Below are positions 12,929-37,900 of a stretch of DNA of 64,000 bases, one piece after another. The DNA is from a virus. Positions within the stretch are counted from its first letter, which is position 1. Every line of letters starts with the position of its first letter. The notes beneath the pieces are model-generated. The model was not told where the DNA came from. It saw nothing but the letters and a program-made list of their open reading frames with translations, and did not search any database. The stretch lies in IMG/VR virus record IMGVR_UViG_3300020548_000009, positions 1-64,000 of that record; one strand, written 5' to 3'. Position numbers and translations under genes: made by a program.

Positions 12929-13146
12929 TAGTGCTTCCCGATGTCTAGAAAACCTGTTTCGTTGCCTTCTGGGTCAGACATTACGAGAGCGTCGGTCCCA
13001 TCAGTGAACTCCAAAATGCATGTTGGTGTTTTTGAATAAAGCCAACCTGTTTCTTTGTTCTCTTCGTCCGTCAGTTCACGAACGTTCTTGATGGTCTTGC
13101 CGACAAGCGACTCAGCGTAATGAGTTTTGTTTATTACTGTGCTCAT
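12928..13146 (-). CDS. 72-residue hypothetical protein in the HTH operon
   Basis: Starts MSTVINKTHYAESLVGKT at 13146, with ATGA overlap to the upstream HTH gene and TAATG overlap to the next gene. Beta-rich C-terminus (CILEFTDGTDALVMSDPEG). No family recognised. Tight coupling to a regulator suggests a related function. Confidence 0.75.
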   Translation of the reverse strand: MSTVINKTHYAESLVGKTIKNVRELTDEENKETGWLYSKTPTCILEFTDGTDALVMSDPEGNETGFLDIGKH

Positions 13147-13376
13147 ACCTTGATGCCTGTCACGAGTTCTTCTGGACGCGTATCAAGCGCGTAGCAGATA
13201 CGGAAAAACGTATCCAGCGACGGAGAGAAGTGTCCATTCTCGATTCTGTTGATGGTCTTGCGGTCAATGCCTGCGCTCTTAGCCAAATCGCCCTGAGAGA
13301 GACCGATGGTCTCGCGCAGGCTCTTTACTCGGCTTGCAACTTCAAGCAGTGCCTTTTTGTTCATTGCGTTGTTCAT
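13143..13376 (-). CDS. XRE-family HTH transcriptional regulator
   Basis: 77 residues from ATG 13376 (MNNAMNKKALLEVASRVKS), with AGAAAGAAAGACAAACA upstream. Residues about 15-70 form a classic five-helix XRE/Cro fold: LRETIGLSQGDLAKSAGID, then KTINRIENGHFSPSLDTFF. Likely a DNA-binding repressor. Its promoter spacer contains a dyad TGACTCGGTCA, a good autoregulatory operator candidate. Heads a three-gene operon with overlapping starts. Confidence 0.9.
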   Translation of the reverse strand: MNNAMNKKALLEVASRVKSLRETIGLSQGDLAKSAGIDRKTINRIENGHFSPSLDTFFRICYALDTRPEELVTGIKV

Positions 13377-13598: not shown

Positions 13599-13769
13599 CT
13601 AGCCGCGCTTCTTGAGGTAAGCCTCAATAGCGGACTTGATGACTGCGGACTTGCTGACCTTGTCCTCTTTGGAAACGGTCGCGATTTTGCGAGCCATGTC
13701 CTCGGAAAGACGGAAGGCGATAAGTGGGTACTTAGCCTTTGGGGTAGTTGCTGTCTTGGTCTTGCTCAT
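13599..13769 (-). CDS. Ribbon-helix-helix DNA-binding protein
   Basis: 56 residues from ATG 13769 (MSKTKTATTPKAKYPLIAF), with AAGAAGAAAGCA upstream. LIAFRLSEDMARKIATVSK gives the RHH strand and first helix, and VSKSAVIKSAIEAYLKK the second helix. A basic N-terminal tail precedes the fold. RHH proteins act as repressors or as partition proteins that bind repeat arrays. The palindrome array at 13972-14104 lies just upstream of its promoter and is the obvious candidate target. Confidence 0.85.
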   Translation of the reverse strand: MSKTKTATTPKAKYPLIAFRLSEDMARKIATVSKEDKVSKSAVIKSAIEAYLKKRG

Positions 13770-13807: not shown

Positions 13808-13836
13808 ATTATACATTGTGTCTAACGCATCTACAA
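13808..13836 (-). promoter_or_regulatory. Promoter of the RHH gene
   Basis: TTGTAG, 17-base spacer, TATAAT. The spacer has TTAGACA, the inverse of the TGTCTAA motif in other promoters. Confidence 0.75.
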
Positions 13837-13874
13837 CCTCTGTGCGCGAGTTCACTCGCGCTTTGGGGTTAAGT

Positions 13875-13904
13875 GACGGTTATATGACGGTTAAGGGACG
13901 GTTA
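13875..13904. repeat. Three GACGGTTA repeats with 11-bp period
   Basis: GACGGTTA at 13875, 13886 and 13897: helically phased direct repeats, as expected of protein-binding iterons. Confidence 0.7.
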
Positions 13905-13911
13905 GATAGAA

Positions 13912-13964
13912 ATGGTACAGGCTCAAACCCTTACTGGGTAAGGGTTTCCGGGCTTTTGTACCAT
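13912..13964. repeat. Nested palindrome
   Basis: Outer arms ATGGTACA / TGTACCAT (13912-13919, 13957-13964) and inner arms AAACCCTTAC / GTAAGGGTTT (13925-13934, 13938-13947) around TGG. Confidence 0.7.
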
Positions 13965-13971
13965 ATTTGCG

Positions 13972-14104
13972 GGTGACAATCTGTCACCTTGGGGGTGACA
14001 ACCTGTCACCCCGGGGGTGACAACCTGTCACCCCCTAGTGACAATCTGTCACTACTTGTGGCGGCCGTCACATACTACATGTAGTGGGGTGACAACCTGT
14101 CACC
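13972..14104. repeat. Array of GGTGACA-N3-TGTCACC palindromes
   Basis: Perfect 7-bp dyads start at 13972, 13994, 14016, 14037 (AGTGACA/TGTCACT) and 14088, with a degenerate half-site near 14067. The first four are spaced 21-22 bp, about two helical turns. Possible operator array, centromere-like site or origin iterons next to the RHH gene. No array gene lies between 13770 and 14121. Confidence 0.8.
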
Positions 14105-14121: not shown

Positions 14122-14802
14122 CTAGACGCCAAGAAGTTCGGCTACTGCCTCGCTTCTCTTCTCTCTGTAGACATCCGAATACTCGGTTCGCCAGTCGCTC
14201 TGCTGGTCCAAGGCTTCGTCTATGTCATCTTTGTCAAAGAGTTTCGCAAGTTTCTTTGGCATCTGTGGCTCTTCGCCCTCTTCGTATGTCATCTCGCCGT
14301 TACGGAATACGGAACAGCCGACAAAGGCGTCTCCTTCTTCCGTGTAAACAAGTGAGAACACGAGCGTTGGGAACTGCTTGGAAATCTGTCTGATGAGACC
14401 TTCGGCAGGCGACCACGCACTCTCAAAGTATGCGCCGATGTATTTGGCATCATCGTTTACTTTGTCGTTCTTGGTGACAAACGAGGTCCAGTCAAATTGG
14501 CAAGCACCCCACTTGGTTCCCCAATTGGCGTTACACCACGAGTACCAGTCTCTGTGACCGTACTTCTTGATGTTCTCTTGCTGTTTGTCTTCCAGTTGCT
14601 TCTGCTCTTGCTCGTCACTGAACCAGCCAGATGTCGTGTTGGTGAGTTCTTCTGGGCAAGGGAAGAGGTGGTTGAGACCGGTAGTTTCTTTGGTCTCGCC
14701 AGTCTCTTCGTCTTTGTGGGTTGTCTTGGTGGCGTCAACGAGCCTTCGCAGTTCGCTGACCTCACCGTGTACTTCTAATTCGTTATAGCACCAGTTTGGC
14801 AT
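14122..14802 (-). CDS. YubB/Api92 ferredoxin-like fold protein
   Basis: 226 residues starting MPNWCYNELEVHGEVSEL. The opening MPNWCYN, the WYSWCNANWGTKWGA centre, and the FESAWSPAEGLI segment fit the YubB / Api92-like (DUF1281) family from plasmids and phages. Acidic C-terminal tail after residue 180. Cellular role of the family unknown. Confidence 0.8.
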   Translation of the reverse strand: MPNWCYNELEVHGEVSELRRLVDATKTTHKDEETGETKETTGLNHLFPCPEELTNTTSGWFSDEQEQKQLEDKQQENIKKYGHRDWYSWCNANWGTKWGACQFDWTSFVTKNDKVNDDAKYIGAYFESAWSPAEGLIRQISKQFPTLVFSLVYTEEGDAFVGCSVFRNGEMTYEEGEEPQMPKKLAKLFDKDDIDEALDQQSDWRTEYSDVYREKRSEAVAELLGV

Positions 14803-25679: not shown

Positions 25680-26395
25680 TTGAATGCCACCCAACCAGCA
25701 AAGTTCAGGCACTGCCAGAAACGCTGCACATTGGTGAACCCAGCGTCTTTGAGCATCTGCTCGTTTTCTGAACCACGCAACGGGACGAGCACACCCTGAA
25801 GTGCCTTTCTCTTTTCCTCTATCTGTTCTTGTGTATAACCTTTATCGGCTTTGAATGTGTGATAAATGTCAACCAACAAATCCTGACAAAGCGGTGTCTC
25901 GCCAAGTATCTTCTCCACGAGAATAAACGCACCATTTAAGGACAAACCATTATGCACTTGCTGATAGAAGTTTTGGCGAATATCAAGGTGAATGAATTGC
26001 GCGGTGAGTACCGACGTGATAAGCGAGTATTCGAGGGGCCGTATCTCGATATCGCTGACATCCGCACAAACAAAACGAACGTTGTTAAAGTTCCCAAAAA
26101 GTTTAGTAGCAGCGTCAATCATGGGCTGACTGGAGTCGACACCAACAGCGGTAGCCGGAACGTCGGCAGGAAGAGCGTCAAGGATTTGGTAGATAGTTTC
26201 ACCACGGCTGCAACCAATATCCAAAAAATTTGACACGTTCGCTGAGCAGAGAATCGGCGCAGCAACTCGCACAACAGAATCGCGCATGGTCTGATACCCA
26301 GGGATTGACCTAGAAATCATGTCGTCAAATACTTTTGTTACGCCTTCATCAAAGGCCCACTTGCCAGTTGGCTTGTAGTTATCGCGCTCGCTCAT
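25676..26395 (-). CDS. cmoA-like: CmoA-like carboxy-SAM synthase
   Basis: 239 residues, close to bacterial CmoA in length. The alignment runs end to end: KWAFDEGVTKVFDDMISRS near the N-terminus, FLDIGCSRGETI for SAM binding, FILVEKILGE, YHTFKADKGYTQEQIEEKR and FWQCLNFAGWVAFK. CmoA makes carboxy-S-adenosylmethionine from SAM and prephenate; the Lys-Arg of the GYxxxxIxxKR motif, near the Arg reported to hold the carboxylate, is kept. Overlaps the ParB-methyltransferase gene as ATGA, so the two are probably coupled. Its usual partner CmoB is absent here. Confidence 0.85.
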   Translation of the reverse strand: MSERDNYKPTGKWAFDEGVTKVFDDMISRSIPGYQTMRDSVVRVAAPILCSANVSNFLDIGCSRGETIYQILDALPADVPATAVGVDSSQPMIDAATKLFGNFNNVRFVCADVSDIEIRPLEYSLITSVLTAQFIHLDIRQNFYQQVHNGLSLNGAFILVEKILGETPLCQDLLVDIYHTFKADKGYTQEQIEEKRKALQGVLVPLRGSENEQMLKDAGFTNVQRFWQCLNFAGWVAFK

Positions 26396-27939
26396 AACTT
26401 CATTCCCAAGCGCTTGGAAAATGCTGCCTTTGCCTCTTCTGCCATTCCGAGTCGGCGTCCTTCTGGATGCGGGACATTGAACTCAAACTCAATAGCGGCG
26501 CGCAATTCGTCTTCCCCAATTTGCCTAGCGTTAAACCCGACTGCCTGCACCAGTCCGTTCTTTGCGGTCAAGAACGTAAGAACCTGTTTATAGCCGTGAG
26601 AGATAAGAGCACCAAACTCTGTTTCGGTGTGGTACTTCTGGACCTTTGGCTTTAGCGCTATATCGGAGATGATGATGCGTGGCTCATAATCAAGGGCAAA
26701 TCCGTTGCTTGATGTGTCGTGACCCTTCTTTAAATCACCACGAGTGTGATTGAACCAGCGGTCTGACTCCGTGCAGATTGCGGCTGTATGGAGTTTTGTA
26801 TGCGGCGAAGATAGGGCGGCAACGATTGCGATGACGTGTTTACGGTCCTGGAGAAACGGAATGCTATTGAATACCGAGGCAATGAAGATGCTGTCCCATT
26901 CCGTACCGTCAGCCACGCGTTCTAGGAATTTTGCTGTTAGTTCGCGCGCTGCGTCGGTATCAATAGTTTCGTTATCTTTTGCAAGGAAGAATGGCTCAAA
27001 TGCAACCGCATCCACTCCCATGTTCTTGAGAATCTCTGTTTTATCGCAAAGGCCTGCACCGAAGTCGATGACATGATTGCCGTAGTAGTCCTTCCACAAC
27101 TCAACGTGACGTGGATTGTTTAGGTCAAATGCGCCGTTGCGATTGCCGGAGTTGATGAAGTGGCGGAGAAAGTCCTCCAAGAACGTCGGGGTGAGAATCT
27201 GGACTCGCTGATTCTTGCGCCGGAAAGAGTTGTAGCGCAGAAGGTCTTCGTAGCGCTCTTGAATGTTGTAGTCCATTGTGAGAAGGTTCAGCATCGCACG
27301 AACTTCTTCGGCAATTTCTGGCGCCACCTGAACCGTCTGTACGGTGTCTTCGTTTACCGATATCGCGTAGGTCAATCGAGCGAGGCCATTGAGAACCTTG
27401 TAATCAGTTGTGCAGATAACGGGCATTTGCGGGAGGCCGTTTGTCTTCAACTGGGCTGCCATTGCAACTGCGTGTTGTTCTGGCCATTTGCCGTTTAGTT
27501 GGATGAGCCTGAGCGTAGAGACTGGCTTGGTCTTCAGTACTGGATACCATTCCGGAGAATCAACAGGGATGTCCGGGAGCATCTTGATTTTCTCAAGGTC
27601 TCCAAGTTTTGTCATCAGGTCATCTTTGAGTTCTGTGGTCGAACGGGTTTTGTACATGTCGTTCGTGGCGCGGTTGTATAAAACGTTGATTCCCATGCGT
27701 CGCTCAATCTTGAACGTGGGCACCCGCACAACGGGAACCATCGTGGCTCCCATGTTCGTAGCAACCATGTGGCGCTGGTGACCACTGAGAATCTCGCCAT
27801 CTTTGTCTGCGTAGATGGGCAGCAGCCAGCCAAACTTACGCAGCGATAATTCGACAAGTTCCAGCCTCTCTGCATCCGCTTTGCGCGGGTTGTATGCAGA
27901 TGGCCTTAAGTCTGTTACTGGCGTAAGAACTGGCTTCAT
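26392..27939 (-). CDS. ParB-domain/methyltransferase-like fusion protein
   Basis: 515 residues. Residues 1-75 form a ParB/sulfiredoxin-type domain (LRPSAYNPRKADAE; EILSGHQRHMVATNMG). A second, weaker ParB-like segment appears near 150-200 (KTNGLPQMPVICTTDYKVLN). Residues about 290-480 look like a class I methyltransferase: NHVIDFGAGLCDKTEILKNM, VDAVAFEPFFL and WDSIFIASVFNSIPF. It starts one base into the tandem ParB gene's stop and is coupled to the CmoA-like gene. A DNA-modification role, possibly with carboxy-SAM, is inferred. Confidence 0.75.
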   Translation of the reverse strand: MKPVLTPVTDLRPSAYNPRKADAERLELVELSLRKFGWLLPIYADKDGEILSGHQRHMVATNMGATMVPVVRVPTFKIERRMGINVLYNRATNDMYKTRSTTELKDDLMTKLGDLEKIKMLPDIPVDSPEWYPVLKTKPVSTLRLIQLNGKWPEQHAVAMAAQLKTNGLPQMPVICTTDYKVLNGLARLTYAISVNEDTVQTVQVAPEIAEEVRAMLNLLTMDYNIQERYEDLLRYNSFRRKNQRVQILTPTFLEDFLRHFINSGNRNGAFDLNNPRHVELWKDYYGNHVIDFGAGLCDKTEILKNMGVDAVAFEPFFLAKDNETIDTDAARELTAKFLERVADGTEWDSIFIASVFNSIPFLQDRKHVIAIVAALSSPHTKLHTAAICTESDRWFNHTRGDLKKGHDTSSNGFALDYEPRIIISDIALKPKVQKYHTETEFGALISHGYKQVLTFLTAKNGLVQAVGFNARQIGEDELRAAIEFEFNVPHPEGRRLGMAEEAKAAFSKRLGMKL

Positions 27940-29258
27940 TATTCTCCGTTTGCTCTACGCGGGCTGACTTTCTTTGAGCGTCGCTGTCGTGTAGAAACCC
28001 ATGCATCGTTCTGAATATCAAGAAGAGAGACGATTCCTGCGCATACTTCGTCGTATGAGTATCCAAACTCAACGAACATTGCCTCTTCCCAATCCTCGTA
28101 AAAGTTCGGCGCCATCTTGAATTCCCACTTACCGATAATCGCAGTCACGTTTCTTGGCTTGTCGTTCTTTTCCTTAACCGGCTTTTCTTTGATGCCCCAA
28201 CCGGCGACCTCATGCATCAGTTCATCTAGGTCATCTCCTGTGTATCCAGTTCCGTCAAACACCGGGAGGGACTGAAGAATCTCTGCAAGTTCTACGTGGT
28301 CGTACGAGCCAAGGTCGGCAGTTTTGTTATCAACCAGGACAATCTTTGCCGCAGATTCTTCATCACAGTCAACAAATGTTGTGGCGATTTGCTTCCAGCC
28401 AAGCATCTTGGCGGCTTTCCATGTGTGATTGCCAACGAGAATCGAGTTATCTCGCTTGTTCACCACAATTGGCCTGAACTGACCGTTCTTGCTCAGAGAC
28501 TCTGCAATAAGGCCGATATCGCCCTGTCGTGCATTCATCGGGTATGGGAAAACACTGTTGATATCCACGTTCTCAGTGGACAGCATGACTGAGTGCATTT
28601 GCTGCCTGTCGATGTTGCGCTTTTGACGCTTGGGCTTTGATTTTTCCGGCGGCAAATGATTCACATCCGAAAGACGCAAACGCTTCTTGAGTTCCACAAG
28701 AACCTTGTCCTCATCTCCAACCTTTCCAATAAGGTCATCTGCCCAATCGGAATAAACATCGTCATCCACAAGAATTCTGTAACTGCCCACGCAAACGCGA
28801 ATCTCTTTGCCGACAGCGCCTGTTCTATCCCGATTCGGCGCTTCGAATTCTCCGTCACCACTAATCAGCGCCTCAAGTTGGTCGAGGTCAACTTGCTGGA
28901 ATCCAGTTCCCTCCAAGGTTGAAAGCGACTGAAGAAGGTCAAGCAATTTTGAATCGTCGTATGACGACATGTCGGATGTTCTGTTGTCTGCAAGGACAAT
29001 CTTCTGTGCACCGTAGTCGTCCACGTCCACAAACGAAGCAGAGATGTGAGTCCACCCAAGGCTTCTAGCGGCTCTCCATGTGTGGTTTCCGGCAAGAATC
29101 GTGTTATCGCGCTTGTTGACGACAATCGGCTTGTATTGTCCGTTGACCTGCAGCGATTGAGCAATAGCCTCAACATCTCCACGCCGTGGATTCTTTGGGT
29201 ATGGCTTTACGCTGGTGATTTCAACAACTTCAGTATTTACCTTGATATTGTCCGACAT
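27939..29258 (-). CDS. Tandem ParB-domain protein
   Basis: 439 residues with an internal duplication. Copy 1 (about 12-125) has VKPYPKNPRRGDVEAIAQSL and PIVVNKRDNTILAGNHTWRA. Copy 2 (about 232-345) has VFPYPMNARQGDIGLIAESL and PIVVNKRDNSILVGNHTWKA. Both carry GNHT where nucleotide-binding ParB proteins have a GxxR-type motif. Copies are joined by a basic linker (PPEKSKPKRQKRNIDR). The ATG lies 7 bases after TATACT but no good -35 is seen. Confidence 0.85.
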   Translation of the reverse strand: MSDNIKVNTEVVEITSVKPYPKNPRRGDVEAIAQSLQVNGQYKPIVVNKRDNTILAGNHTWRAARSLGWTHISASFVDVDDYGAQKIVLADNRTSDMSSYDDSKLLDLLQSLSTLEGTGFQQVDLDQLEALISGDGEFEAPNRDRTGAVGKEIRVCVGSYRILVDDDVYSDWADDLIGKVGDEDKVLVELKKRLRLSDVNHLPPEKSKPKRQKRNIDRQQMHSVMLSTENVDINSVFPYPMNARQGDIGLIAESLSKNGQFRPIVVNKRDNSILVGNHTWKAAKMLGWKQIATTFVDCDEESAAKIVLVDNKTADLGSYDHVELAEILQSLPVFDGTGYTGDDLDELMHEVAGWGIKEKPVKEKNDKPRNVTAIIGKWEFKMAPNFYEDWEEAMFVEFGYSYDEVCAGIVSLLDIQNDAWVSTRQRRSKKVSPRRANGE

Positions 29259-29629: not shown

Positions 29630-29919
29630 TTTGTGTAACTGTTTCTCCATTGGCTTGGCGAATGAGCATCCTCAACCGCCTTTTTGTGGGTGTCATCTTG
29701 GTAGAGGCGAATCATATGCATGCATGGGTCATTGGATTCAAACTCCTCAATTTCGTCTTCCGACATTGGCAGTCCATCGTGGGTATAGCAGACCGGAGGA
29801 CCGCACCAACCGCGGCTGATACCAAAGGCCATCCAATCGTCAAACGATGTTTCGCCAGGGATTGGATTTCTACCAACTCCTAGGTAATTCTTTTCGGGGT
29901 CATAAAATGACTCAGACAT
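29626..29919 (-). CDS. 97-residue acidic hypothetical protein
   Basis: Starts MSESFYDPEKNYLGVGRNP. Contains RGWCGPPVCYTHDGLPMS and acidic EDEIEEFESNDP followed by CMHMIRLYQDD; this middle part resembles a small uncharacterised actinophage protein. Eight-base overlap with the DnaD-like gene. Confidence 0.7.
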   Translation of the reverse strand: MSESFYDPEKNYLGVGRNPIPGETSFDDWMAFGISRGWCGPPVCYTHDGLPMSEDEIEEFESNDPCMHMIRLYQDDTHKKAVEDAHSPSQWRNSYTK

Positions 29920-30580
29920 TCAACTCACCTTTCACTGTTACTGTTTCGGACAGGCGTTGCTCGCGCGCAGCCTTGATTGCGTTCCAGCCTTTAGGTACGA
30001 CTCCATTGAGGCCGTTCATTGGCTGATTTGCTGGGTCACACTCTGACCAGCGATTCACAAGCGCAGACGGTGTCATCGTTGCGTTTGGAAACTTTTGTCT
30101 ATAAATAGCGGCTCTTGCCTGAATGTCTTCAGGCGTAGCCTCGCACTCATTGAGCACTCGTACCATTCGCCCATAGCGAGATGCCTCAGAAGAGTTCACT
30201 TTGTCTGGGTTTACGTTGCAGACAACCAAGAGCGTGTCCCAAATTGGGTTTCTTTCGCGCTTGGAAACTGCCTTTTTCTTCTGTGGGGCAACAACCTCAA
30301 CTTCCGTAGAGATGGAAGCCTTTTTGTGAGTCACAATTTTGTAGAGGCTTGAGGTTCCATGACGCTTTACTACTTCAAGTTCGCCAAGGGCCACCAAGTC
30401 CTGCAAACGGCGCTTCACCGTTCGCTCAGACACATTTGCGCGCCTAGCAATAACGCTGATGCGCGGAAAAGCATCCTCACCTTCGCTATTGCAATGGTCT
30501 GCAATAACCAAAAGGATTAGGCGCTCAATGCCTTGAGCCTTTGAGTTCTCAAAGACCCAGTCCATGATTTTAATTGACAT
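29912..30580 (-). CDS. DnaD-like winged-helix replication protein
   Basis: 222 residues starting MSIKIMDWVFENSKAQGIER. Residues 20-90 are a winged helix with HCNSEGEDAFPRISVIARRA and RTVKRRLQDLVALGELEVVK. A helical C-terminal domain follows (ILNECEATPEDIQARAAIYR-like block). The layout and the adjacent G39P-like gene suggest replication initiation and helicase loading. Confidence 0.75.
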   Translation of the reverse strand: MSIKIMDWVFENSKAQGIERLILLVIADHCNSEGEDAFPRISVIARRANVSERTVKRRLQDLVALGELEVVKRHGTSSLYKIVTHKKASISTEVEVVAPQKKKAVSKRERNPIWDTLLVVCNVNPDKVNSSEASRYGRMVRVLNECEATPEDIQARAAIYRQKFPNATMTPSALVNRWSECDPANQPMNGLNGVVPKGWNAIKAAREQRLSETVTVKGELNV

Positions 30581-34957: not shown

Positions 34958-37900
34958 TTATCCTATGCAGGTATTGGTCGCTACACACGTAAATCCTGGT
35001 TCGCATGGCGGGTCACAGACAGGAGGAGGGCTTACTGGCGGAGTAACAGGAGGTGTCACCGGCGGAGTAACTGGCGGAGTAACTGGCGGCGTGACCGGCG
35101 GAGTAACAGGCGGCGTGACCGGCGGAGTAACAGGCGGCGTGACCGGCGGAGTTACCGGCGGCGTTACCGGGGGAGTGTAGATGCCGTTACAGTCATTCGG
35201 CGCGTTCTGGAATGGCGCAAGGCATTGATTTTCATAACCACAAATTTCGTTAATGTAAAGGAACGTCGTGCATAGTTGACCCTCATAGGAAGGTTCCACT
35301 GGAGATACTGGGTCAACCGGGGCAACTGGACCAACTGGGTCGACCGGGGATACTGGGTCAACTGGGCTTGGCGAACCAGCGCACTCTTCAAGACAATAAA
35401 TTGTTTCCGTGTTGTCATCATGAACAATGCGGGCAAATAACGTAAGGGTATCTGCGTCCCAAAAGAATCCGATTCTGTCCGTGTAATCATTTGCTTGATA
35501 TTGAATTCCTTCTTTCCATACTGCAAGTTTTTCTGTTGTTGCCGGGTTGCCATCAGATGCCCACAACTCAAGTTTTTCCCATGTCAAAATTGATTTTGAA
35601 CCAAATGAGTCAATGCTTTCTGGACCATTCAATTTCATTCCTGCCGCGTCATACCCTTGACTGTCCGCCCATCCTTCAGCAGAATCAAGGTTTCCAATAA
35701 ACATATTCCCCAAGAATGTGCCGCCAAGTTGTAGATATCCAGGTTGTATTTCCAGGTCTCCGATTTTTCCTGTTGCTGCAGTCATGTAACCAGCATTTGT
35801 TACCGAAAATGGAGCATTGCTTATGCTGGCGGAACCGGACCACATGTCTCCATTTGCACCAACGTGGAAAGATGTGGCGTCAAAACCACCAATATCAATT
35901 GTTGAACCAATAATTTGACCAGCAAAATATCCGTCAACTGTGTAAAGGTCACCAGTCACGGAACTAATTTGAGTTACCAAATCTCCGGCGTTATTGAATG
36001 CTCGGAGTCCTGAAGAATCTATGATAATTCGAGGATTAGATGTAGATGTTTGGAGCGTTGGTGCGGTAAGTGTTCCTTGAACCCATGTGCCATTTCGTAC
36101 TGTTACTGAGTTGAGTTCTGCATCTCCAGATGCTTCAATTGTCCATCCGCTTGTGTCTGCAACATAGTTGTTTGAGCGGATTGCTCCGTTGAACAAGACC
36201 TGAGCGCTTGCCGAAGCGGTGAAGGAAAACGGAGGAGATGGCACGCCGGACTGACCGTTTGTCGTATATGGAAGAATTGTAAATTGGTATTCTCGCCCAG
36301 GAGCAGCAAGATTCTCAAACACTGCAGAGTTTTTGTCTGCGGCAACCGTGGCCGAGTGACGCTCAACAATTCGAGTTACGTCTCCGACAGATGCTGTTCC
36401 TGTTGGGATGTCTGGGCCTACGTCGTCAAATGTAAAAAAAGTTGCTGACGCACTTGTCAAAAACACAAGAGTTCTGTCAAAGTATCCGTCTGTAGTGCCA
36501 GTGATATTGATTAAGTCGCCAACATTAAAGCCATGCTGGTCATCGACTTCTGCATAAGCAATATTTCCGTCACGGTAGATGTCGACAATTGGATAACTAA
36601 TTGCTATTCCAACACTGTTTTGCTCTTCTCGGTAAACAATCGCTTCGTAATGAGTAGCGCTTGTGTTGTCTGGGGATTCCCAAGAGGCAACAACTCTGTT
36701 GCTCATCCCAACAACTTCAGCGCCAACAGAAGTTCCTGTTGGCGCCAACGGCTTTGATGATGTGCCGCGAAGCGTAAATGTTGGTATTTCAGCAGCACCG
36801 AGACGCCCGTAGTTTGCTGCGTACTTTAGGTTGCTTGCAATATCCTGAAAGATGTCTCCGAAAGTGACTTCAATTGTTTCGTTGCCGTTTTCGTCGATAG
36901 AAGCACTTATCGCACTGATAATTCGTTCGCTGAATACTCCTGTATCAATTTCCACGAGTACTTTGTCGCCAATGTCAAAGTCTTCCCACGCGGTCATGCC
37001 GTCTCGCTCAGCAAATGATGTGGTTATTTGCAACTTGCCATCGCGAACCTGGCGAACCGCAGAGGCAGTGATATTTGCAACGGCCGGAGCATCTTCCGAC
37101 GTATTCTCAATAAACATTTCACGGAAACCGTAAGTTCCTGTGCGGTCAGAGATTTGCCTATCCAGATTGAACCCGTCCGAGCCATAAACAACTGTTCGTA
37201 GTTCAGAAACTGACGTTCGTGTTTCTACGGTCTCCAGCATTGGAAGACTAAAAATGAGTGCTGCAGAACCACTGGTCATGTCATCGCCAAATGGTTCGTC
37301 AAACACAATTGTGTCAGTGGTAAACGGCCTTACTGCAACACTGATAACGCCGCTTGGCGAGACATGCCAATCCACGCCAGTATTTGCGGAAACTTCGTTT
37401 ATTACATCAAGAAGAGTTCGGCCAACTGCAATGTTGAAGTTTCCTCCATCTCGAACGACTCGCCCTTTCGAGTCTGTTTTACCCAAAGATGATGTGAGGG
37501 TTGCATCAAGAGAAAGTGGCCAGTCAACCGCGTATCCGATTCCTCCACGGCCGTTAAGAGTTTTGATTGCGCCAAAGTCTTCCTTCTTTGTCGAATACTC
37601 ATAGCCAGTATCTGCTTCTGTAAAGAGGATGTAAAAGGCAGATATTCCAGTGAACGCACCAAGCGAAACTTCGGTCCAGACAATGCTTACTGAGCCAACT
37701 TGATTTGATGATGTCAGACCACCATTTGATGTAATAGCAAAAGATTTATACCCATTAGTTGTTCCTTCATTTACGAAGGCTGCGTTGCCGACTTCAAGGT
37801 CTGAGATTGGACTTCCGTCTGCCCTTGCAGTGCGCTGAATAACCCAAGGATTTGAAGAGCCACCAATAGAAACAATCCAATAGACACCGTTATGGGCTTG

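What the first reader, a model, noticed from the sequence alone, without database searches (positions are those of the whole stretch)
13875..14104. Iteron-like repeat locus beside a ribbon-helix-helix gene
Three 11-bp-period GACGGTTA repeats, a nested palindrome (8- and 10-bp arms) and five GGTGACA-N3-TGTCACC dyads spaced 21-22 bp lie together just upstream of the promoter of the RHH gene at 13599-13769. RHH proteins act as partition or repressor proteins that bind such arrays. This could be a centromere-like or origin locus, or a multi-operator control switch.
Basis: partly seen in the sequence, partly recalled or inferred. Interest (0 to 1): 0.75.

Follow-up and report, generated by a model that had tools for sequence, protein, structure and literature searches.

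The report
Phage replication origin, detached from initiator
The repeats are most likely the place where this actinobacterial virus starts copying its DNA: landing sites for its own lambda-O-like starter protein plus a second repeat shared with unrelated phages, placed far from the starter gene instead of inside it.

Summary
The repeats are real and, for the dyads, far above chance: five perfect GTGACA-N3-TGTCAC dyads (13973-14103, nowhere else in the 84.7-kb record) and three to four 11-bp AACCGTC repeats (13867-13904). Both are kept in all five related contigs.

They are best read as a two-part replication origin, not as the RHH protein's site. Dyads of this kind, found by DNA pattern alone, lie inside O-like (HTH_36) phage initiator genes in 35 of the 38 loci that have such a gene nearby. 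A blind search for three AACCRTC 11-mers hit 116 non-family loci; 87 lie inside an O-like gene, same sense, with dyads on the 5' side. The window repeats this order and orientation, but between genes. Its only detected O-like gene lies 16 kb away (29912-30580), as in every relative whose contig reaches that far.

In the one relative with altered dyads, the O-like recognition helix changes (K56T) while the XRE helix and RHH strand do not.

Against: most loose TGACA-dyad arrays elsewhere have no O-like gene, GC skew shows no origin signal, and binding is untested.

Verdict: a new variant of a known kind, a detached O-type origin. The 11-mer is a general second element that my literature searches did not find described.

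The parts
13972..13988 (.). iteron dyad 5 (GGTGACAATCTGTCACC)
13994..14010 (.). iteron dyad 4 (GGTGACAACCTGTCACC)
14016..14032 (.). iteron dyad 3
14037..14053 (.). iteron dyad 2 (AGTGACAATCTGTCACT)
14058..14071 (.). possible degenerate sixth site (GTGGCGGCCGTCAC), kept as GTGAC-N4-GNCAC on the minus strand in the aligned relatives
14074..14085 (.). short palindrome ACTACATGTAGT between dyads 1 and 2; function unknown
14088..14104 (.). iteron dyad 1, the best kept dyad (13 of 17 columns invariant)
13912..13964 (.). nested palindrome between dyads and 11-mers; poorly conserved, role unclear
13867..13904 (-). second origin element: AACCGTC 11-mers, read on the minus strand, 34 of 38 columns invariant in 5 phages
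13808..13836 (-). sigma70-like promoter of the RHH gene next to the origin (TTGTAG-17-TATAAT)
   Evidence: sequence; consensus match only
13599..13769 (-). 56-aa ribbon-helix-helix (CopG/Arc-like) gene; neighbour, not shown to bind the array
13143..13373 (-). XRE/Cro-type HTH gene; neighbour, rival binder
14122..14802 (-). Api92-like (DUF1281_C) gene whose 3' end borders the array
29912..30580 (-). O-like HTH_36 replication initiator gene, proposed reader of the dyads, 16 kb from them

Best explanation
The locus is the phage's replication origin. A dimer of the phage's O-like winged-helix initiator (29912-30580) binds each GTGACA-N3-TGTCAC dyad. Five or six such dyads, spaced two helical turns apart, load cooperatively into an O-some-like complex. 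The neighbouring AACCGTC 11-mer block on the RHH-promoter side is the melting or helicase-entry element. The phage has no detected DnaB helicase or family A polymerase of its own, so the host replisome takes over. Unlike lambda and most relatives, the origin is not inside the initiator gene but between genes 16 kb away, so the initiator must act at a distance. Shown here: the repeats, their conservation, the association of both elements with O-like genes, and the presence of the initiator gene. Inferred: binding, melting, initiation, and what the 11-mers are read by.
For: (1) Pattern-only search for tandem TGACA-N3-TGTCA dyads, with the loci, gave 123 loci; ORFs within 4 kb cluster into one dominant family, in 38 loci, which are O-like/HTH_36 initiators (4 members profiled). 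The array lies wholly inside that gene in 35 of 38 (about 0.11 expected per locus, binomial p about 5e-30). (2) Of 37 non-family loci with the exact 17-mer GGTGACAAYCTGTCACC, 14 have it inside an O-like ORF. (3) Pattern-only search for three AACCRTC 11-mers: 87 of 116 non-family loci have it inside an O-like ORF in the same sense; in 84 with enough flank, dyads average 1.44 in the 150 nt 5' of it against 0.24 in the 3' (Wilcoxon p 4e-12). The window has the same order and strand. (4) The record encodes one detected O-like protein (E 1.3e-19; PF13730 E 1.2e-11; PHROG replication-initiation families). (5) Four of five contigs with array and RHH gene encode it 16-18 kb from the array (spacing computed); the fifth contig ends first. 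(6) In L009 the dyad's right arm differs and, of the three candidate binders, only the O-like protein changes in its recognition element (SERTVKRR to SERTVTRK).
Against: No binding data. 85 of the 123 tandem-dyad loci have no member of the O-like cluster (four of these 85 are this phage family itself); of 50 of those records searched whole, 44 have no detectable one, so loose dyads alone are not diagnostic (full GTGACA..TGTCAC arrays: 16 of 20 with O-like, looser ones 22 of 99). 28 of 116 11-mer loci had no O-like hit, although several look like other wHTH replication proteins or contig-end fragments by eye. GC skew has no turn at 14 kb. The helix-motif covariation is one event. The closest named O-like phages looked at (Arthrobacter Kels, Arielagos, KellEzio, Decurro) have no TGACA dyads in the gene.
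Confidence: 0.84

Rival explanations
1. The array is a multi-operator switch for the neighbouring XRE (Cro/CI-like) protein, as lambda OR/OL are for CI and Cro: 17-bp odd-centred dyads with 4-5 bp spacers controlling the RHH-XRE operon.
For: XRE gene lies 0.6 kb away and is kept in the five relatives; 17-bp tandem dyads resemble lambda operators (recalled).
Against: The XRE recognition region is unchanged in L009 although its dyads changed; the same dyads recur inside O-like genes of other phages; the dyads sit about 135 bp upstream of the -35 box, not over the promoter.
Confidence: 0.07
2. The 11-bp repeats and/or dyads are bound by the 56-aa RHH protein as autoregulatory operator or as a centromere (ParR/omega-like).
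For: Adjacent and co-conserved in all 5 close relatives; RHH base-contacting strand KYPLIAFRL is invariant and so are the 11-mers.
Against: 11-mers of the same sequence and phase occur inside O-like genes in 87 of 116 loci; in L227, L228 and L230 the only window proteins with a counterpart on the locus were the O-like protein and, in L227, the ParB-like protein; no ParA-type ATPase found.
Confidence: 0.06
3. Tandem hairpins acting in RNA or single-stranded DNA (terminators, processing or packaging signals).
For: Each dyad could form a 7-bp stem; tandem TGACA-N3-TGTCA dyads also occur in AT-rich contigs without an O-like gene.
Against: In L009 the four copies listed break stem pairs while the outer GGTG/CACC positions stay; no T-run follows the dyads; the palindromic hairpin itself is not conserved.
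Confidence: 0.03

Closest known systems
Bacteriophage lambda and Shiga-toxin-phage ori (O protein iterons; PMC7466680, abstract and passages seen)
   Same: Tandem imperfect-dyad iterons (19-bp inverted repeats, 4 to 6 of them), dimeric phage initiator, flanking melting region.
   Different: Lambda ori lies inside gene O and its flank is AT-rich; here the array is intergenic, 16 kb from the initiator, with another iteron sequence and an AACCGTC 11-mer block that is not markedly AT-rich.
O-like HTH_36 initiators with in-gene TGACA-N3-TGTCA or GGTGACAC-type iterons
   Same: Same or similar dyads, 20-24 bp spacing; where present, AACCRTC 11-mers on the 3' side in the same sense.
   Different: In those the origin is inside the coding sequence; in the window family both elements are non-coding.
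Iteron plasmid origins (RepA/RepE type)
   Same: Direct-repeat initiator sites near a small repressor gene.
   Different: Recalled comparison only; no Rep_3/RepA homologue was sought, and the initiator here is O-like.

Membership tests
Lambda-type origin (iterons inside the initiator gene) | Tandem dyad iterons about two helical turns apart | tested here: met
   Spacing 22, 22, 21, 51
Lambda-type origin (iterons inside the initiator gene) | Phage encodes an O-like winged-helix initiator | tested here: met
   wHTH in the model, residues 5-82
Lambda-type origin (iterons inside the initiator gene) | Iterons lie inside the initiator gene | tested here: not met
   All 5 exact copies at 13973-14103, none in 29912-30580; no 11-mers in that gene
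Lambda-type origin (iterons inside the initiator gene) | Easily melted region beside the iterons | tested here: inconclusive
   11-mer block and promoter are in the 94th percentile of instability in 40-bp windows, not extreme
O-like initiator-dependent iteron origin (location left open) | Iterons recur with O-like initiators and follow their recognition helix | tested here: met
   35 of 38 inside the gene; the recognition-helix part rests on one covariation event in L009
O-like initiator-dependent iteron origin (location left open) | Initiator binds the iterons and starts replication there | not testable with these tools
   needs footprinting and replication mapping
RHH partition locus (ParR/omega type) | Partition ATPase encoded with the RHH protein | tested here: not met
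   No PF13614 (ParA-type) match at E<=1 in the record; ParM-type not tested; the record may be incomplete
Lambda CI/Cro-type operator array | Operator changes tracked by repressor recognition helix | tested here: not met
   XRE recognition region identical in L009 though its dyads differ; one event

The most novel reading that the evidence does not exclude
The AACCRTC 11-mer array is a general, previously unrecognised second cis-element of O-like phage origins. It is held nearly constant while iterons and initiators diverge, so it is probably read by something common to all these phages (host helicase-loading machinery, or a shared single-strand-binding surface of the initiator). The window family is a natural experiment that lifted both elements out of coding sequence, showing that they are DNA signals, and split initiator from origin.
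Probability: 0.55. Interest if true: 0.75.

Novelty: new variant of a known kind. Interest (0 to 1): 0.62.

Why it matters
Origins inside initiator genes are hard to dissect, because changing the DNA changes the protein. Here both elements are non-coding, so each can be mutated freely. It also gives a testable iteron motif and an 11-mer element that can help locate origins in uncultured phages by sequence alone, and a natural case for the old question whether O-type initiators act in trans (PMC6022878, abstract seen).

Tried and rejected
Near-DNA match of the 10-20 kb region to 50,697 phage records: none. RHH homologues in the same records: none. Genome-contig search with the initiator alignment: 75 stretches matched a pattern, none confirmed. 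GC skew for origin placement: no signal. Initiator model: confident only in parts (mean pLDDT 70, pTM 0.37); no Foldseek hit at E<=0.001; the VIA list is mixed winged-helix proteins led by LexA, with the replication initiator RctB domain 1 lower down. One search, planned as a negative control (33 single-site loci), found O-like genes in 9 of 33; in at least seven the site lies inside that gene by coordinates, so it is not a clean control; one search replaced it. Fifteen named O-like phage genes picked by protein: 3 of 15 hold one or more TGACA dyads at up to 1 mismatch inside the gene, others have other repeats or none; TGACA ranked first of 60 arms of the same letters but on 5 hits only. AACCRTCA 11-mer scoring in those 15 gave p<=0.05 in 8, and in the TGACA-array genes only a minority, so the 11-mer is not universal. 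The HMM used 34 of the 38 cluster members (L075, L076, L096, L123 dropped as truncated or spurious frames); L123 is counted among the 35 inside. Literature turned up neither the 11-mer nor a detached O-type origin; only open PMC papers are held, I read listings and, for five papers, abstract, outline or passages, and the older review of phage replication modules (Weigel and Seitz 2006, recalled) was not available. The TGACA hits in PMC7466680 are, in the passages seen, oligonucleotide flanks, not lambda iterons.

Full report
What was checked. The window is bases 1-64000 of an 84,684-base IMG/VR virus record. A WhiB-like gene points to an actinobacterial host. The reported repeats are present: five perfect GTGACA-N3-TGTCAC dyads, three full AACCGTC (GACGGTTA on the + strand) repeats with an 11-bp period plus a partial fourth, and a nested palindrome. 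The dyads occur nowhere else in the record.

Conservation. A search with the 56-aa RHH protein found five contigs with a close homologue and one weak one. One of the five (L005) is identical to the window in this region, so four are independent relatives (L006-L009). All keep dyads and the 11-mers. In the alignment without L005, the 11-mer block is the most invariant part (34 of 38 columns). Dyads vary from 2 to 13 of 17 columns, the nested palindrome 15 of 52, and the GCGCGAG palindrome 3 of 17. Part of the low dyad score comes from sites lost or misaligned in L007 and L008 and from L009, whose right arm has changed (GGTGACAACTGGACACC).

Who uses such dyads. With the loci, 123 loci had a cluster of two or more dyads. 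ORFs within 4 kb were clustered by BLAST: one family stood out, in 38 loci, next largest 11. Its members are O-like initiators: PHROG replication-initiation families for all four profiled, HTH_36 for three of the four (one of them below the curated cut-off). In 35 of 38 the dyads lie wholly inside the gene, the arrangement of phage lambda (PMC7466680). The other 85 loci lack a member, four of them being this phage family itself; 50 of those records were searched whole and 6 had an O-like match. So the loose dyad has other users; the full GTGACA..TGTCAC form is more specific (16 of 20 against 22 of 99 loci). Of 37 non-family loci with the exact 17-mer, 14 hold it inside an O-like ORF, 2 have an O-like ORF elsewhere in the locus and 21 have none.

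The initiator of this phage. The record has one detected HTH_36 match, in a 222-aa protein at 29912-30580 that matches the profile of the 34 initiators at E 1.3e-19 and PHROG replication-initiation families. Its model shows a winged helix at residues 5-82. It lies in a minus-strand run with RusA-like resolvase and ParB-like genes. No DnaB-type helicase, family A polymerase or ParA-type ATPase was found in the record. Homologues sit in four of the five contigs that carry array and RHH gene, 16-18 kb on the same side (positions). The fifth (L007) ends before that point, and so do the four short contigs with a close initiator homologue but no array (L174, L175, L176, L179). Neither dyads nor 11-mers lie in the initiator gene itself.

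The second element. A search for two AACCGTC 11-mers found three outside contigs, each with the repeats inside an O-like frame and beside dyads (GGTGACACAGGTGTCACC in L228 and L230, GGAACC-type in L227). A blind search with three AACCRTC 11-mers then gave 118 stretches where I estimate well under one by chance (my estimate; the collection size in bases is not stated). Of the 116 loci outside this family, 87 have it inside an O-like ORF in the same sense, 1 has an O-like ORF elsewhere and 28 have none detected. By eye many of the 28 look like other winged-helix replication proteins or contig-end fragments, and some are intergenic. In 84 of the 87 with enough flank, perfect dyads average 1.44 in the 150 nt before the 11-mers and 0.24 after. 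Since 11 is not a multiple of 3, the repeats run through all frames, so a repeated peptide does not explain them; in the window family they are non-coding and still the best conserved stretch. The element is not universal: 8 of 15 named O-like phages score p<=0.05, and only a minority of the TGACA-array genes do.

Who reads the dyads here. In L009 the dyad arm changes and, among the three candidate binders, only the O-like protein changes in its recognition helix: residue 56 is K or R in the other five aligned proteins and T in L009. The RHH strand KYPLIAFRL is invariant, as is the XRE recognition region. This is one event, so suggestive only.

Mechanism. Most likely dimers of the O-like protein fill the dyads at about two-turn spacing. 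The complex strains the DNA towards the 11-mer block, which with the adjacent promoter is among the more easily melted stretches (94th percentile), and the host replisome is loaded there. The RHH promoter just beyond it and read-through from the 14122-14802 gene could provide transcriptional activation, as at lambda ori; that is inference. The RHH and XRE genes may be an unrelated control operon or a copy-control pair; nothing here decides it.

Novelty. O-type origins inside initiator genes are known. Not found in my searches (open PMC papers only) were an O-type origin far from its initiator gene, or the AACCRTC 11-mer as a shared element. I therefore file this as a new variant of a known kind.

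Noticed in passing
window 1593, 5254, 7624, 10099, 11546, 13519, 17992, 20437, 21358: A dispersed element of roughly 80 bp (core AAATATGGTGTTCC..GATTATTGGATTTATTT..CGCCGTTCCCTTGG) recurs at nine places in the left third of the window; possibly a shared terminator or regulatory RNA.
   Followed up: no
window 12750, 13414, 14843, 16671: Repeated CTTACATTGTA (minus strand TACAATGTAAG) upstream of minus-strand genes; looks like a shared promoter -10 region.
   Followed up: no
L081, L089, L115, L134, L148 and other AT-rich contigs: Tandem TGACA-N3-TGTCA dyads beside small heat-shock-like, ClpB-like and other genes (read by eye), without a detectable O-like gene in 44 of 50 non-O-like records searched; another reader of the same dyad, or terminators.
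   Followed up: partly
L213 (Bifidobacterium phage PMBT6) and L228: O-like genes with GGTGACAC-type iterons: a slightly different spacing of the same half-site, hinting that iteron spacing varies between phages.
   Followed up: no
window 26392-29258: Two adjacent ParB-like genes next to the initiator gene, one with two ParB_N stretches, without a detected ParA-type partner.
   Followed up: no
window 35034-35176: 12/24/48-bp coding repeat (GGCGGCGTGACC..) in the large 34958-38518 gene.
   Followed up: no
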